A stretch of DNA of 64,000 bases from Pseudomonadota bacterium (GTDB lineage Bacteria; Pseudomonadota; Alphaproteobacteria; Rhodospirillales; Magnetospirillaceae), in NCBI GenBank assembly GCA_021848545.1, contig JAJZUL010000002.1, positions 62,001 through 126,000 on the forward strand, written 5' to 3'. Position numbers and translations under genes: made by a program. This document shows positions 34,143-38,947 of this stretch, one piece after another. Below the pieces are notes generated by a model. It was given only the letters and a program-made list of their open reading frames with translations, searched no databases and had not been told where the DNA came from. The stretch's first letter is position 1, and each line of letters begins with the position of its first letter.

Positions 34143-34145
34143 GGG

Positions 34146-34265
34146 TTAGAGCGACGCGCCTGAAATCTGAACGTCCGGCTAAATCTTGGACGCGTCGCTC
34201 CGGCGAGCATTGAGCGAGCGGCTAAGCGCGCGGACGCGCGCGCTTAGGCAGAGGGCCAAATATAA
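34146..34265. repeat. Family B repeat, copy 3, left part (interrupted by a transposon)
   Basis: It starts TTAGAGCGACGCGCC four bases after the gmhA stop. It has the same GAGCGACGCG/CGCGTCGCTC hairpin and GC block as the copy at 15178. It stops at CCAAATATAA, where the transposon enters. The missing right part resumes at 36679. Confidence 0.85.
34258..34265. repeat. Target-site duplication, left (AAATATAA)
   Basis: This 8-bp sequence directly precedes the left inverted repeat and is repeated exactly at 36679-36686 after the right one. Eight bases is the normal IS1595-family duplication. Confidence 0.9.
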
Positions 34266-34293
34266 GGCGTTTATATATTTTACAAACCCATAT

Positions 34294-34512
34294 TTATTTA
34301 TGGAGCGCCTCTAGATCAATCCAGCGCTCTGTATCTGCATCCCATCTACATAGTCCAATCCATTTAAAGCGCCCAGCACTTAAAAGAACTTTCGCACGTT
34401 CACGTAATGTCTCAATGTTATCGCTATATTCGCATTGGTCTGGGAGTGATGTGCTGTCGGCGTCTTCCCATAGTTCGAGCGCATATTGGCCGTCATTATG
34501 GTTTATCCGCAT
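34294..34512 (-). CDS. Small transposon passenger protein, unknown
   Basis: The 72-residue product (MRINHNDGQYALELWEDAD to DTERWIDLEALHK) is acidic and Trp-rich, with no recognised domain. It is the last passenger gene. It overlaps the 3' end of the 58-residue gene by 17 nt; an upstream ATG at 34539 would add nine residues. No clear ribosome site precedes either start, so translation may depend on coupling. Confidence 0.5.
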   Translation of the reverse strand: MRINHNDGQYALELWEDADSTSLPDQCEYSDNIETLRERAKVLLSAGRFKWIGLCRWDADTERWIDLEALHK

Positions 34513-34672
34513 CGGATGGCGGTTTACCGGCATCGGCATTTTCCTGATCTCGTGTGGGATTCGCCTTGGCAATCTTCCGCAGCTTGTCCTCAAAGGCGCG
34601 CTCGTTCTCGTCGCAACCGGCCTCGCGGGCGGCGCTCACGAACTTATCAAATTGCTTTTTCTCTTCTCTCAT
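34496..34672 (-). CDS. 58-residue charged passenger protein
   Basis: The frame encodes MREEKKQFDKFVSAAREAGC, a very charged helical protein ending in SDADKP. Its ATG overlaps the stop of the PIN gene by one base (TAATG), a typical coupling arrangement, which supports it being real despite its size. No family is recognised. Confidence 0.6.
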   Translation of the reverse strand: MREEKKQFDKFVSAAREAGCDENERAFEDKLRKIAKANPTRDQENADAGKPPSDADKP

Positions 34673-35124
34673 TAAAACAACCGTGGTTGCGATGGCGGCA
34701 AGGGCTTCCTGATTAGAAGAGGCGGCGTCCCCACCTTGCCGTTCTTGGAAATTAAACCGTCATCGAAGGTTTCAATGGTCGGGATTTTTGCTTCTAATGC
34801 CGTCGCCACGTGAATGGCGTCCTTTGGCCTGATGCCGTTGTCCCAGACCAGCGTCTGAGCTTCTTCGGAGATGAAACGGGTTACGTTCCGTAGGCGTATT
34901 ATCGAGCGTCGGAAAAATTTTCTAACGATTTCAGCGCGATCTTTTGGGATCGGCGGCGCATTTCTCAGCCAAAGGCACTCTGCAAGAGTAAGCGTCGAGG
35001 TGACAATAAGAATATCGCCTGTTTCTGCCCGCTCCAATGTGGCTCGACAGGGGCCGACTCTATCGGCTTCCTCTTGGAAATAAGCAAGAAAGCAAACGCT
35101 GTCCCAGTAGACCAGTTCCGTCAT
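34672..35124 (-). CDS. PIN-domain protein (VapC-like putative ribonuclease toxin)
   Basis: The 150-residue protein has the full acidic set of a PIN nuclease: D8 (YWDSVCFLAYF), E49 (TLAECLWL), D102 (RPKDAIHVATAL) and D121/D122 (TFDDGLI). VapC-type PIN proteins cut tRNA or rRNA and are normally held by a co-encoded antitoxin. Its start overlaps the 251-codon upstream gene by four bases (ATGA), so that protein is the natural antitoxin candidate, although it does not look like a usual VapB. Carried on a transposon, the operon could aid retention or phage defence. Confidence 0.82.
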   Translation of the reverse strand: MTELVYWDSVCFLAYFQEEADRVGPCRATLERAETGDILIVTSTLTLAECLWLRNAPPIPKDRAEIVRKFFRRSIIRLRNVTRFISEEAQTLVWDNGIRPKDAIHVATALEAKIPTIETFDDGLISKNGKVGTPPLLIRKPLPPSQPRLF

Positions 35125-35867
35125 GCGGACATCCTTAGAATGCCGCGCACGTCATCGATACCTGGAAGGTCATCGTCGTCAGGGAGTGGTTCGATCTTGC
35201 TAACTTCGATGCTTATGGGTGCCCCGTTCTTTCTATAATGAATATTTCCATGCACCTCGACGCGCCTGCGGAAATTCCCAAGCGCATCTTTCAACATTTC
35301 ATCTGGGATATAGCATCGCACGGTCTGGCGAAGAAGCGCGTCGCGTATGCGGAGCTGAAGGTTTCCATGATCCTGAATTGCCTCAAGGCGACCTTCAACG
35401 GTGCCAAAATCATTGTAGTCAGCCTTCCAATCTTCGCGAATTATCTTCGCGATGGTCGGCTCAAGTTGATTTGGCTTCTTGCAGACCCATAGCTTCATCG
35501 CAACGGGCTTTCCCCTAACGCCCTCTGCAAACTCAGACAGCGTCTTTAGATGCTTTAACGCGGGCTCAGAGAGCCCGGCCTCATCAACATCACCGGACGC
35601 CAATCGCGCAATCCCGTGGTTGACGCGCGCATAAACCGCCTTAACGACTTCTACGGGAACAGTTGCCCCAGGGTCAACACCGATCAGTTGACTGCCCTCA
35701 CGCAACCGCACAACCCATTGAGGAGGAGTGCCGTCCGGAGAGGCGGATTTACCAACTTCTTCTATGTACCCAAAGAATGCGCGCGCAGCGGCCATGAACC
35801 TGTCAGGGGAGAGGTTCTCGCTAATCTCTAGCGTCAGGTCGCTCGGTATCTGTTCTGGCGTAGCCAT
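35121..35867 (-). CDS. Unrecognised protein upstream of the PIN gene (candidate antitoxin or partner)
   Basis: This protein of 248 residues from the ATG at 35867 matches no family I know. It has a helical N-terminus (LSPDRFMAAARAFFGYIEEVGKS), a central VVRLREGSQLIGVDPG, and a C-terminal strand-rich part (EGRLEAIQDHGNLQLRIRD, then RRRVEVHGNIHYRKNGAPISIEVSKIEPL) resembling a nucleic-acid-binding barrel only in a loose sense. It overlaps the PIN start by four bases and begins 26 nt after the transposase stop. At this size it is much larger than ordinary type II antitoxins. Confidence 0.7.
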   Translation of the reverse strand: MATPEQIPSDLTLEISENLSPDRFMAAARAFFGYIEEVGKSASPDGTPPQWVVRLREGSQLIGVDPGATVPVEVVKAVYARVNHGIARLASGDVDEAGLSEPALKHLKTLSEFAEGVRGKPVAMKLWVCKKPNQLEPTIAKIIREDWKADYNDFGTVEGRLEAIQDHGNLQLRIRDALLRQTVRCYIPDEMLKDALGNFRRRVEVHGNIHYRKNGAPISIEVSKIEPLPDDDDLPGIDDVRGILRMSA

Positions 35868-35893
35868 CCAACGCACTCCGGTTCGTTGAGAGT

Positions 35894-36613
35894 CTACGCC
35901 CCCGACGAGTCCCTGTACATCAACCTTTTTCCAACGATTCCAGCCAGTGCGATGGCGGAGCGCTCACCATCGGACGCATCCCGTTCGTTGTAGCGGAAAT
36001 TGAACTCAGCTACGTAGCGATGCAGATGCTTCTTGGCGCAGTGCTGGTAGACGCCCTTCATGCCGCGCTTGAAGATGCTGAAATAGCCCTCGATGGTGTT
36101 GGTATGCGTCTCGCCCCGGCCGTATTCGCCGATGCCATGGCGGACAACGCCATGGCCGTTGAAGTGCCGGCCCAGATGGACGTACTGCCCGGCTTCGTCC
36201 GTGTTGACGGTCGTCTCCTTGGCGATGTTTTCGGCCAGGATCGGCATAAGAGTCATGGCCTCGCGCAAACGGTGCGCCATGAACCAGGCCGTCTTGTAGG
36301 TCACCTCTAGCACCCGATGAAGCTGGTGGGCGCTGATACCCTTCTTGCTGCTGCACAGCAGATAGGCCGCCTGAAACCACTTATGCAGCGGAACATGGCT
36401 GGACTCGAAGACGGTTCCGACTTTGACGGTGAACTGTTTACGGCAATGACCGCACTTCTTGAGGCCGATGCGCGTGCTGTTGCCTTTCAGATCATAGATA
36501 CGATCAACCGCGCCGCAGTGCGGACAGGTCGGGCCTTCCGGCCAAATGATCTCTTCCAGCTTCGCTACTGCGGCGGTTTCATCGTGGAAGTAGGGTTTGC
36601 TCAAAACGCTCAT
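35894..36613 (-). CDS. IS1595-family (ISXO2-like) transposase with internal in-frame deletion
   Basis: The 239-residue protein starts with a zinc ribbon (C30, C33, C54, C57) and the HKWFQAAYLLCSSKKGISAHQLHR region. It ends with the DDE part: D139 (NTDEAGQY) and E175 (HTNTIEGYFSIFKRGMKGVYQHC). Full-length relatives, as I remember them, are about 300-330 residues and carry the first catalytic Asp in a DETYIG-type motif after REAM. Here REAM (residue 120) runs straight into TLMPILAENI, so roughly 80 residues and that Asp are missing. The frame is open, but the enzyme is probably inactive. GGAGA precedes the ATG. Confidence 0.88.
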   Translation of the reverse strand: MSVLSKPYFHDETAAVAKLEEIIWPEGPTCPHCGAVDRIYDLKGNSTRIGLKKCGHCRKQFTVKVGTVFESSHVPLHKWFQAAYLLCSSKKGISAHQLHRVLEVTYKTAWFMAHRLREAMTLMPILAENIAKETTVNTDEAGQYVHLGRHFNGHGVVRHGIGEYGRGETHTNTIEGYFSIFKRGMKGVYQHCAKKHLHRYVAEFNFRYNERDASDGERSAIALAGIVGKRLMYRDSSGA

Positions 36614-36678
36614 CGGGCGATCTCCTAATATGGAGATTCTACCGCCGGTGCGTTGGGTTTGTAAAGTATATAATCGCC

Positions 36679-36731
36679 AAATATAAAGCCTTTAGACCGT
36701 GATGCAGATTTTCTGCGTCACGGTCTAAAGG
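36679..36731. repeat. Family B repeat, copy 3, right part, with target duplication
   Basis: It starts with AAATATAA (36679-36686, the right target duplication) and continues to a hairpin with 18-nt arms: TTTAGACCGTGATGCAGA (36691-36708) and its near-exact complement (36712-36729). The right arm contains the TAG stop of the TPR/ATP-grasp gene. Confidence 0.85.
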
Positions 36732-38947
36732 CCGGCGGTGCGGGCCAGCAGGGCGTCGAACGCCCGCTTGATTTGCGCCACATGGGGGTCTTTGTAAGGC
36801 AGGGCGCGGTTGTGGCCGTGGATCAGCATGGTGGCGTTGACCTCGAACACCACCACCCGGCCCCCCCCGTCCACGGCGCAATCGATGCCGAAAAATTCCA
36901 GTCCGACGATGCGGCGGATTTCGGCCAGGGCGGCCATGGCGGCGGGACCGAACACGGTGCCGGGATCGGCGAGGAAGCGCTTTTCCTCCTCCTGCATCCA
37001 GGGCGTGGTTTCCATTTCGGTGCGGTAATGATGGACCTTCCACTGGTCGGCGATGGCCAGATGATAGGGCAGGATCTCGTCGCCCACGAAGATCATCCGG
37101 TATTTGCGCACGAACCCGTCGGCCGAGCGGCAATCGACGAAATCGCTGAGATAGTAGGATTGGTCCGGCTGCCGGCCGACAAAGGCGGCCAGCGCGGCGC
37201 GATCCTCGATCTTTTCGAAATCGTCGCCGCCGTGGCTGCCCGCCAGACGCACAAGGAAGGGAAAGGCGAAACCGGTCGTCGCATGCCCGTCGGACAGCAG
37301 TTGCGATCCGGTGCGCCGCGCGACGCGGGGGACCCGGCATCCGGGGATGTCGGCCAGCAGACGGGCGATGGTTTCGCGATCGGTGACGGCGATCCGGTCG
37401 GGGTGATTGATGACCGGCCGGTCCAGGCGGCCGATCAGATCGGCCGCCATCTTCAGGGATTCAGCGCTTTTGTCGGGGTCGGAGATCAGATTGACCACCA
37501 CATCGCACCCGGCCTGCGCCGCCGCCGGTTCCGGGTCGCGGCCGGACAGCAGGGCCAGGAAATGGGCGTCATAGGCATCGCGGCCCACCAGGTATTCGGC
37601 AGGCGTGTTGCCGGCGCCCGGCGCGTTGAGCAGCAGCACGGAAAAAGCCGACGGCTGCAACGCCGCCGGCCAGGTGACCAGGGGTCGCTTGTCCATAACG
37701 AGATCGAAATAGACCTTGGCCTCGGTGATCCGGCCCAATTGGTGCAGCGTGTTGCCCAATTCCATCAGATAGGTGGGCTCGTCGGGGTGAAGCTCGGCGG
37801 CCTGGGCGAAATCGAGCGCGGCTTCGGCCAGACGGCCGGCGCCGGCCAAGGCGGCGCCGCGCTTGTAATGGGCGGCGGCGAAATCCGGTCGCAGGGCAAG
37901 GCAGCGGCTCAGGGTGGCGATGGCCGCGTCCATATCTTCCAGGGCGGTTTCGGCGGCGCCCAGGATGTAAAGCAGCCCGGCATGGGCGGGGTCGGACGTC
38001 TCCCCCAGGCCGTCCGCCAGGGCCACCACGTCGTCATGGCGTTCGCATTCCAGCAGCAGGGCCGCCAATTGGGTCCGGGTGTCGGCGTGGCCGGGCCTCA
38101 GCGCCAGGGCTTGGCGATAGGCGTTCTCGGCCTCCGCCGCCCGGTGCCGGCCATGGTGCAGGCGGCCGATGGCCAGCCGGGTGTCGGCATCGTCCGGCGC
38201 CAGGGCGGCGACACGGTTCAACACGCTCAACGCCCGATCCTCGCGGCCGGCGGCCGCCGAAGCGGCGGCCAGCCGGCGCAGCAGTTCGGCGTCGTCCGGA
38301 GCCGTCGCCACCAGACGCTCCAGATGGCCGGCGACGACTTCATAAGCGGCGCGGGCCTCGTCCCAGCGGCCCAGGGTCGCCAGCAGGCGCGCCATGTTGG
38401 CGGTGGCGTCGGCATGATCGGGGGCCAGGGCCAGGGCCTTGCGGCAGGCGGCGATCCCGTCTTCGATGCGACCCGCCGCCGCGTATCCATAGGCCAGATT
38501 GTTCCAGCCATCGACATCGTCGGGCCGCAAGGTAAGGGCGGTTTCATAGGCGGCGACGGCCGCGGCCGGTTGACCGGCCAGCAGCATCACCAACCCCAGG
38601 CCGGCATGGGGATCGGCCTGGGTCGGGTCCAGCGTCACGGCTCGTTCATAGGCGGCGCGGGCGGAATCCAGGTGGCCCAGGGCCCGTTCGGCATCGCCCA
38701 GGCCGCTGAACAGCACGGCATGGGCGGGCGCGGCTGAGGATTCCACCAGGGTGGCCGCCCGTCGCAGCAACGGCGCTGCTTCGTGCGGGCGGCCGGAATC
38801 GAGATACAAACGCCCCAGAAGGTGCCGGGCGTTGGCATCGTCCGGGGCGGTGTCCAGAACCTGGCGATACCGGGTTTCGGCCGCCGCCAGATCGCCTTTC
38901 TGGTGAAAAGCCAGCGCGTCGAGAAGCACGGGATCCGGCGACGACAT
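36725..38947 (-). CDS. TPR protein with C-terminal ATP-grasp domain
   Basis: The 740-residue protein has about 11 TPR repeats (1-430; for example PTQADPHAGLGLVMLLAGQPAAAVAAYETALTLRPDD) joined to an ATP-grasp-like domain (about 440-735). The latter shows INHPDRIAVTDRETIARLL, FPFLVRLAGSHGGDDFEKI, and the metal-binding end FFGIDCAVDGGGRVVVFEVNATM. ATP-grasp enzymes ligate carboxylates to amines; the TPRs would present a protein or peptide substrate. The product is unknown. GGGGAGG precedes the ATG, and the stop codon is inside a family B hairpin. Confidence 0.8.
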   Translation of the reverse strand: MSSPDPVLLDALAFHQKGDLAAAETRYRQVLDTAPDDANARHLLGRLYLDSGRPHEAAPLLRRAATLVESSAAPAHAVLFSGLGDAERALGHLDSARAAYERAVTLDPTQADPHAGLGLVMLLAGQPAAAVAAYETALTLRPDDVDGWNNLAYGYAAAGRIEDGIAACRKALALAPDHADATANMARLLATLGRWDEARAAYEVVAGHLERLVATAPDDAELLRRLAAASAAAGREDRALSVLNRVAALAPDDADTRLAIGRLHHGRHRAAEAENAYRQALALRPGHADTRTQLAALLLECERHDDVVALADGLGETSDPAHAGLLYILGAAETALEDMDAAIATLSRCLALRPDFAAAHYKRGAALAGAGRLAEAALDFAQAAELHPDEPTYLMELGNTLHQLGRITEAKVYFDLVMDKRPLVTWPAALQPSAFSVLLLNAPGAGNTPAEYLVGRDAYDAHFLALLSGRDPEPAAAQAGCDVVVNLISDPDKSAESLKMAADLIGRLDRPVINHPDRIAVTDRETIARLLADIPGCRVPRVARRTGSQLLSDGHATTGFAFPFLVRLAGSHGGDDFEKIEDRAALAAFVGRQPDQSYYLSDFVDCRSADGFVRKYRMIFVGDEILPYHLAIADQWKVHHYRTEMETTPWMQEEEKRFLADPGTVFGPAAMAALAEIRRIVGLEFFGIDCAVDGGGRVVVFEVNATMLIHGHNRALPYKDPHVAQIKRAFDALLARTAGL

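What the first reader, a model, noticed from the sequence alone, without database searches (positions are those of the whole stretch)
34258..36686. Complete IS1595-family transposon carrying a four-gene PIN-domain operon
The sequence directly shows 25-bp inverted repeats (23/25 identical), an exact 8-bp target duplication AAATATAA, an ISXO2-like transposase and four co-directional, overlapping passenger genes: a 248-residue unknown, a PIN nuclease with full acidic set, and 58- and 72-residue unknowns. IS1595 members are known to take passengers, but I do not recognise this cargo. The chain of 1- and 4-nt overlaps suggests a single functional module (toxin-antitoxin or defence) spread by transposition.
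Basis: partly seen in the sequence, partly recalled or inferred. Interest (0 to 1): 0.85.

Follow-up and report, generated by a model that had tools for sequence, protein, structure and literature searches.

The report
Jumping gene carrying toxin-type gene pair
This is a real bacterial transposon carrying a gene pair that looks like a toxin and its antidote; related transposons carry the same kind of pair or other cargo, much of it of self-defence type, although this particular copy has lost part of its own jumping enzyme.

Summary
In detail: an IS1595-family transposon (34266-36678), with 25-bp ends matching at 23/25 and an exact 8-bp duplication. Other copies of the repeat it landed in, in the same genome, show the uninterrupted site. 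It is not functionally complete: the transposase lacks 67 residues, including the first catalytic Asp that all ten aligned relatives keep. No other transposase at E 1e-40 or better was found in this genome.

The cargo recurs. Seven further transposons carry an A (248 aa) + PIN pair of the same family between ends with exact 8-bp duplications. A and PIN overlap in 30 of 30 loci and diverge in step (r=0.98), but not with the transposase (r=0.27): an exchangeable two-gene cassette. The 58-aa gene tracks the transposon (0 of 17 pairs outside transposons have it); the 72-aa gene does not recur. A is predicted as an unassigned domain plus an OB fold; PIN keeps four acidic residues.

Best reading: a toxin-antitoxin-type cassette read through from the transposase promoter. 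Related elements carry other cargo, much of it toxin-antitoxin or defence-type. Function is inferred, not shown. New variant of a known kind.

The parts
34258..34265 (.). 8-bp target duplication, AAATATAA (left copy)
   Evidence: single uninterrupted copy in other repeats of the same genome
34266..34290 (+). terminal inverted repeat, cargo-side end
   Evidence: 23/25 to the other end
34294..34512 (-). 72-aa ORF; no relative among 71 fetched loci; probably not part of the conserved module
   Evidence: no Pfam; tblastn and phmmer, no match at E 1
34496..34672 (-). 58-aa small protein, a gene of the transposon rather than of the A-PIN cassette
34672..35124 (-). PIN-domain protein (150 aa), probable ribonuclease toxin; D8, E49, D102, D121 invariant in 27 of 27 aligned
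35121..35867 (-). protein A (248 aa): N-terminal alpha/beta domain + OB fold (about 149-232) + conserved C-terminal tail; probable antitoxin or regulator of PIN
35894..36613 (-). IS1595-family transposase (239 aa) with an in-frame core gap of 67 residues that takes away the first catalytic Asp; probably inactive
36636..36665 (-). promoter-like pair TTTACA-18-TAGAAT reading into the transposase (consensus match only)
   Evidence: 1 found, 1.9 expected in shuffles
36654..36678 (-). terminal inverted repeat, transposase-side end
36679..36686 (.). 8-bp target duplication, AAATATAA (right copy)
34144..34257 (.). left part of the interspersed repeat into which the element inserted (many copies in this genome); it resumes at 36687

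Best explanation
An IS1595-family transposon inserted into one copy of a genomic repeat, duplicating 8 bp. Behind its transposase gene it carries a two-gene toxin-antitoxin-type cassette: PIN, a probable RNase toxin, and A, an OB-fold partner that probably binds and restrains PIN, perhaps through its conserved C-terminal tail. The cassette is probably read through from the promoter at the transposase-side end, so cells that hold the element make the pair and would suffer if they lost it. The cassette is exchangeable between transposons of this clade, whereas the 58-aa gene is the transposon's own. The transposase of this copy has lost part of its catalytic core, so the copy is probably stranded while its cargo reading frames stay intact. 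Shown by sequence: insertion, ends, duplication, recurrence, A-PIN linkage and co-divergence, cassette exchange, core gap. Inferred: toxicity, neutralisation, read-through, addiction.
For: Insertion. Family: NF033547 137.7 bits against a cut-off of 75, PF12762 80.9 against 27. Recurrence: 7 other A-PIN transposons with exact 8-bp duplications (L037, L041, L055, L063, L064, L067, L069). PIN: PF01850 in 27 of 27 aligned, four acidic residues invariant. A and PIN overlap by 1-17 nt in 30 of 30 loci (start codons picked by script); distances correlate r=0.98 (p=0.0001, 11 elements) and 0.97 (p=0.001, 28 loci). Exchange: transposases of L037 and L039 are 82% identical, their A proteins 20%; Tnp-A r=0.27, p=0.13. 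Read-through: A starts 23-32 nt after the transposase stop in 9 of 10 elements (L051: overlap of 4). A without a working PIN: L042 and L046 (PIN interrupted), L044 (none found), L022 (PIN split); every A hit (4 of 4; 11 of 11, own genome in both) is free of stops. A Pseudomonas phage has A+PIN about 100 nt behind an annotated repressor gene, same strand.
Against: No toxicity or neutralisation was tested. A matches no antitoxin family by sequence (the nearest thing to a DNA-binding domain is one winged-helix family at E 0.062 in 1 of 30), so autoregulation is unsupported. A (248 aa) is long for an antitoxin. A-led searches find A by design, so intact-A/broken-PIN counts are small and biased. 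PIN as effector of a phage-sensing system fits the same data. The one promoter-like site is no more than shuffles give. A-PIN is a minority cargo: among transposase loci examined in the order it is in 3 (window, G066, G053), and 0 of the 36 further loci fetched have it.
Confidence: 0.66

Rival explanations
1. A-PIN is an anti-phage (abortive infection) system: A senses a phage or foreign nucleic-acid signal through its OB fold or N-terminal domain and releases PIN, which stops growth. The transposon spreads it as useful cargo, not as an addiction device.
For: Other cargo of the clade includes AIPR, a C-5 DNA methylase, a GmrSD-type and SocA_Panacea proteins. A+PIN lies behind the repressor in a Pseudomonas phage. 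The fold of A matches three phage proteins over most of the chain, E 1.7e-8 to 7.2e-8, one named DUF6575. PADLOC candidate PDC-M32A matches 2 of 30 A proteins weakly.
Against: No PADLOC model matches the window proteins at E 0.1; PDC-M32A matches are weak (best E 0.00014). The phage fold matches have rmsd 9.6-11.2 and TM 0.43-0.48 of the query. Defence-island context was not tested. Does not exclude the leading reading: toxin-antitoxin pairs can defend.
Confidence: 0.24
2. A, PIN and the small protein are part of the transposition machinery itself (regulation, target choice or mRNA decay of the transposase) rather than cargo.
For: Tight spacing behind the transposase; constant gene order and strand; the small protein tracks the transposase (r=0.65, p=0.0001) and lies within 2 kb of one in 11 of 12 hits.
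Against: A+PIN occurs without a clear transposase in 17 of 32 loci, does not co-diverge with it, and the 36 related loci fetched have other cargo. The objection does not apply to the small protein.
Confidence: 0.06
3. An ordinary VapBC toxin-antitoxin pair picked up by chance.
For: PIN toxin with an upstream overlapping partner; VapC is the one solved relative found by the PIN profile at E 0.001 (7by2, E 0.00045).
Against: Partner is not a VapB by sequence: no Pfam antitoxin domain in any of 30 members at E 0.1; OB fold predicted instead. The pair recurs in related transposons.
Confidence: 0.03
4. Decaying passenger DNA with no present function in this genome.
For: Transposase core is deleted; single copy; no other close transposase. 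Some relatives are decayed (L044, L061, L066, L165).
Against: A and PIN frames are intact with all four acidic residues kept, at 57% (A) and 72% (PIN) identity to L037.
Confidence: 0.08

Closest known systems
IS1595 family transposons with passenger genes (NCBIfam NF033547; Pfam PF12762/PF12760)
   Same: Transposase family, zinc ribbon, inverted ends, 8-bp duplication, passengers between transposase and far end. That IS1595 members can carry passengers and make 8-bp duplications is recalled.
   Different: Cargo here is a PIN pair. IS1595 with 'defense systems' and 'cargo' gave 0 papers; IS1595 family with toxin-antitoxin gave 11 papers, none about such cargo by title or shown abstract start. 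Transposase core is deleted.
Toxin-antitoxin pairs in Tn3-family transposons (Lima-Mendez et al. 2020, PMC7157771; abstract, passages and the Discussion section read)
   Same: Pairs including PIN toxins beside the transposition genes, several acquisitions; 'take me or die' proposed there.
   Different: Tn3 pairs sit by the resolution site with classical antitoxins (RHH, Phd/YefM, AbrB/MazE, HTH, MNT); here there is a small DDE element, no resolvase, an OB-fold partner, and the pair lies directly downstream of the transposase.
Defence and toxin-antitoxin cargo of Tn7-like transposons (Benler et al. 2021, PMC8649781; passages read)
   Same: Transposons carrying diverse defence and toxin genes, PIN toxins among them (Table 1 there).
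   Different: Tn7-like elements use several transposition proteins (recalled); here one small transposase and elements of about 2-4 kb holding few genes.
VapBC
   Same: PIN-domain protein encoded downstream of and overlapping a partner.
   Different: Partner has no recognised VapB domain; it is longer than the toxin and has a predicted OB fold.
PDC-M32 (PADLOC candidate; in a Sinorhizobium prophage, PMC12429752, passages read) and DUF6575-type phage proteins
   Same: Weak profile match to 2 of 30 A proteins; fold match over most of the chain in BFVD.
   Different: PDC-M32A profile 375 positions, phage proteins 370, 381 and 270 aa, against 248; PDC-M32B was not matched by any of 27 PIN proteins.

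Membership tests
IS1595-family transposon | IS1595 transposase above curated cut-off | tested here: met
   NF033547 137.7/75 bits; PF12762 80.9/27; PF12760 41.6/25.4
IS1595-family transposon | Inverted ends and 8-bp target duplication | tested here: met
   empty site
IS1595-family transposon | Complete catalytic core | tested here: not met
   First Asp region absent from the window copy, present in 10 of 10 aligned relatives
Type II toxin-antitoxin system | Two overlapping genes that stay together | tested here: met
   Overlap 30 of 30, r=0.97-0.98
Type II toxin-antitoxin system | Toxin domain with intact active site | tested here: met
   PF01850 27 of 27 aligned; D8, E49, D102, D121 invariant; broken PIN in L022, L042, L046, not aligned
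Type II toxin-antitoxin system | Toxicity, and neutralisation by the partner protein | not testable with these tools
   needs expression tests
VapBC | VapB-type antitoxin domain (RHH, AbrB, Phd, HTH) | tested here: not met
   No such Pfam family in 30 members at E 0.1, apart from one unrelated winged-helix family at E 0.062 in 1 member; predicted OB fold
VapBC | VapC-like PIN | tested here: met
PDC-M32 candidate defence system | PDC-M32A and PDC-M32B both matched | tested here: not met
   A: 2 of 30 weak; B: 0 of 27 PIN proteins
DUF6575-type phage proteins | Same fold over the whole chain | tested here: inconclusive
   Foldseek E 1.7e-8 but TM 0.43-0.48 and rmsd about 10; DUF6575 not among the families
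Tn3-type transposon with toxin-antitoxin pair | Tn3 transposase and resolvase | tested here: not met
   Only an IS1595 transposase was found; no resolvase among the five proteins

The most novel reading that the evidence does not exclude
A whole clade of IS1595 transposons works as a shuttle for interchangeable toxin-antitoxin and defence cassettes. Many of its elements have one transposase, one tiny element-specific protein of about 50 aa (two families that were never found together) and one slot for a cassette. Where the cassette lies directly behind the transposase, as A-PIN does, a burst of transposase makes toxin and antidote, giving a minimal 'take me or die' element. A would found a class of OB-fold antitoxins that may bind the tRNA-like substrate of the PIN nuclease or the nuclease itself.
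Probability: 0.3. Interest if true: 0.82.

Novelty: new variant of a known kind. Interest (0 to 1): 0.62.

Why it matters
It shows that small one-transposase elements, not only Tn3 and Tn7-like ones, carry and exchange toxin-antitoxin-type genes. The A-PIN pair has a partner of no named antitoxin family. Because the pair sits 23-32 nt behind the transposase in 9 of 10 of its elements, the open question of whether transposon-borne toxin-antitoxin pairs help invasion by coupling to transposase expression becomes testable in an element of about 2.4 kb. The tiny element-linked proteins are a new handle on how this clade transposes.

Tried and rejected
Single-sequence scan of genome contigs with A found nothing; the alignment scan found 18 (three are the loci L037, L041, L042 again and were dropped from counts). 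No A relative in viral contigs or in plasmids with four queries; PIN gave none in plasmids at E 1e-10. The phage collection was searched only with the A of L050 and the phage A (one record), not with the window's A. PDB by sequence gave nothing usable for A and nothing for the L117 and L110 cargo. For the whole A model Foldseek found no PDB match at E 0.001 (best 0.0021). The N-terminal domain predicted alone (pLDDT 92) had no convincing PDB match: best Foldseek E 0.083, best Z 5.4; this does not show the fold is new. DrmC matches 1 of 27 PIN proteins weakly (E 0.0059) and was not pursued.

A 4-gene operon as one module was considered and rejected. In one search the comparison with the 72-aa protein did not run (its file was not there); it was run properly (71 loci, three of them duplicates, no match at E 1). 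Single capture of A-PIN by the clade is not excluded: the tree needs 4 changes, starred branches force only 1. A shared 8-mer upstream of the transposase and at its stop was looked for as a cassette boundary and not found: 0 of 33. Weaker PIN relatives (L020, L021, L023-L036) have no A at E 1. The PIN pair of L105 has a partner with no detectable similarity to A, though by eye its layout is similar.

Selection of rows: PIN alignment A9 leaves out L042, L046 (broken PIN), L043 (contig edge) and L044 (no PIN found). The correlation over 28 leaves out the same four and L022. The transposase tree uses 34 of the 36 fetched loci (L120, L129 with broken transposases left out) plus 11 A-PIN rows. The 45 cargo proteins were picked by eye from the ORF lists, the first of them partly cut; ORFs that looked antisense or spurious were dropped, and a second ORF of L131 was dropped because it was cut. 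Labels such as HEPN-like, KilA-like or GIY (L103 matched no Pfam family) on the tree are my reading of motifs. One search gives family counts, not which protein; the assignment to loci is by eye.
Full report
WHAT IS THERE. The element runs from 34266 to 36678. Its 25-bp ends match at 23 of 25 positions and AAATATAA flanks both sides. The insertion can be shown directly: it lies in an interspersed repeat with many copies in this genome (32 matches to the left-flank query in G000, its own included). The two flanks joined match other copies with a single uninterrupted AAATATAA, for example L145 at 96% over 162 columns; L148, L151 and L152 also read through, L146 with one change inside the 8 bases; L142 and L150 have small insertions there, and the remaining copies fetched did not align across the junction or diverge there (12 copies fetched). 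The genome holds one copy of the element.

THE TRANSPOSASE. It is IS1595 family by curated cut-offs. Compared with its nearest aligned relative in L037 (76% identical) it lacks 67 consecutive residues in frame. In an alignment of 11, the other ten carry the DET motif with the first catalytic Asp; the window copy does not. The role of that Asp in DDE transposases is established knowledge. In this genome no other transposase reaches E 1e-40 against L037's (the two matches are the two halves of this gene). The copy is therefore probably stranded. An assembly error cannot be excluded.

THE CASSETTE RECURS. A-family proteins were found in 4 of 297 genomes of the order and 11 of 385 of the class, the own genome in both, and at 18 loci of the public genome collection, three Nitrospinota/Nitrospinae assemblies among them. 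Seven other elements have A+PIN, a transposase, matching ends and an exact 8-bp duplication: L037 TTTTTTTG, L041 AAATATTT, L055 CGCAAAAC, L063 AAAATGAA, L064 CAAAAATA, L067 AAAAAATA, L069 CAACAAAA. L039, L044 and L051 have one mismatch in the duplication (L044 has a broken transposase and no PIN found); in L050 the flanking octamers do not match and the transposase is split. L051 has a divergent A as well. 17 of 32 A loci have no clear transposase in the stretch held (L048 and L056 have only weak matches and are counted there).

A AND PIN ARE ONE UNIT, THE OTHERS ARE NOT. The genes overlap in 30 of 30 loci (start codons picked by script). Pairwise distances of A and PIN correlate at 0.98 (11 elements) and 0.97 (28 loci), those of transposase and A at 0.27 (p 0.13), transposase and PIN at 0.24 (p 0.16). 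L037 and L039 have transposases 82% identical but A proteins 20% identical, so the cassette has been exchanged. The small protein is found in 13 of 15 A loci with a transposase or a clear piece of one (not L043, at a contig edge, nor decayed L044) and in 0 of 17 without (the profile was built from loci that hold it, so presence is partly by construction, absence is not). It also lies in seven loci with other cargo: L101, L104, L107, L116, L125, L127, L130. A search of 297 genomes gave 12 hits, three of them loci that went into the query; 11 of 12 (8 of the 9 new ones) lie within 2 kb of and on the same strand as a transposase, and the twelfth, L165, lies beside PIN fragments with no transposase found. 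Its distances correlate with the transposase (0.65, p 0.0001) and less with A (0.49, p 0.006). The 72-aa protein has no relative in the 71 loci compared.

WHAT A AND PIN LOOK LIKE. All 27 PIN proteins aligned match PF01850; D8, E49, D102 and D121 are invariant. A was modelled at mean pLDDT 88: an alpha/beta N-terminal domain, an OB fold at about 149-232 matching SSB, PriB and aspartyl-tRNA synthetase OB domains (rows at Z 8.0-8.4: rmsd 2.4-4.2 over 66-80 residues, a modest score; Foldseek itself gives no PDB match at E 0.001), and a tail ending in LP..DVRG in most of the near group and in an LR.G stretch in several distant members. Four of 30 members match the OB-fold tRNA_anti-codon family weakly (best E 0.0025). 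That the tail resembles the arginine-bearing tails of known PIN antitoxins is recalled and untested. Three phage proteins match A along most of the chain, with poor superposition (rmsd 9.6-11.2), one named DUF6575.

HOW IT PROBABLY WORKS. A starts 23-32 nt behind the transposase stop in 9 of 10 elements, and overlaps it by 4 in L051 (L050, with its split transposase, not counted). The only promoter-like site found in the element lies in the transposase-side end (no better than shuffles). So A and PIN are probably made from the transposase transcript (inferred). PIN as an RNase toxin held by A is the reading that best fits linkage, overlap, conserved active site and the cases with A intact but PIN broken or not found (L022, L042, L044, L046). 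An abortive-infection role for the same pair is the main rival.

THE WIDER CLADE. Of the further transposase places, 36 were fetched; the weaker ones were not. 24 of 36 have ends with at most 6 of 22 mismatches and an exact 8-bp duplication, against 0 of 103 when left and right sides of different loci were paired. None of the 36 has A or this PIN family. In 45 cargo proteins from these loci (some from loci without found ends) Pfam finds at E 0.01 DUF3800 (5), RhuM (2), SocA_Panacea (2), HNH (2), MtlR (2), DUF4145 (2), and once each C-5 methylase, AIPR, IrrE-type peptidase, PIN_10, DUF4160, GmrSD_N, DUF5615, PIN, DUF433, GIY-YIG and a few others. Many of these are toxin-antitoxin or defence-type families (recalled); enrichment was not tested against a control. 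A second small family occurs in 11 of these 36 loci (8 of them used to build its profile), never with the first. On the transposase tree of 45 rows A-PIN carriers are clustered (4 changes, shuffled mean 10.1) but mixed with other cargo; the nearest rows to the window are L037, L039, L041 and L130, the last with a partial transposase and a DUF433/PIN_10-type pair (assignment by eye).

LITERATURE. Toxin-antitoxin pairs in Tn3 elements (PMC7157771; abstract, passages, Discussion) and defence and toxin cargo in Tn7-like elements (PMC8649781; passages) are the closest described ideas. Searches with IS1595 plus passenger genes, toxin-antitoxin, defense systems/cargo, and ISNwi1 (in one search 15 of 21 papers listed), with OB-fold plus antitoxin plus VapC or PIN domain, and two broader ones on PIN/transposon cargo showed no paper on this cassette by title or shown abstract start. 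Passages on IS1595 in PMC11092175 (elements of 1000 bp with one ORF) and PMC7371123 mention no such cargo. Only open-licence papers are held, and the founding IS1595 paper was not read.

VERDICT. Real, correctly delimited, and more interesting than a single element, but the four-gene-module and complete-element claims fall. New variant of a known kind (transposon-borne toxin-antitoxin cargo), with function inferred.

Noticed in passing
window 34144-34257 and 36687-36732: Interspersed repeat with many copies in this genome (32 matches to the left-flank query in G000, own copy included) and a near-perfect hairpin at 36688-36732; nature not examined.
   Followed up: partly
L108, L110-L113, L115, L117, L119, L122, L124, L126: A second family of tiny proteins (RRDEVLKRMLNTPPKPH-type), 11 of 36 IS1595 loci, not found together with the first family; in the eight seen on the strand opposite to the transposase.
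   Followed up: partly
L070 3959-5318 (phage PQ349086.1): A+PIN pair about 100 nt downstream of and on the same strand as an annotated repressor gene in Pseudomonas phage vB_PaeS_AV001; the PIN gene is annotated there as a repressor protein.
   Followed up: partly
window 35889-35896 and the same place in L037, L041, L055, L063, L064, L067, L069: TAGAHTCY motif at the transposase stop in 8 of 10 A-PIN elements and in none of 23 other elements; could be a -10 box or a cassette boundary.
   Followed up: no
L130 1171-2849: DUF433 + PIN_10/DUF5615-type pair, small protein and DUF4160-type gene (by eye, families) behind a partial transposase close to the window's; element ends not found.
   Followed up: no
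L131 3212-4417: C-5 DNA methylase with a possible nuclease gene behind an IS1595 transposase; element ends not found.
   Followed up: no
L110 1807-3582: AIPR (abortive infection) protein inside an IS1595 element with ends and exact 8-bp duplication CTTGCGGG (assignment by eye).
   Followed up: partly
L055 5854-6219: Mrr_N-type protein as an extra last gene in an A-PIN element (Pfam E 1.3e-11); what follows the small gene differs between the elements looked at.
   Followed up: no
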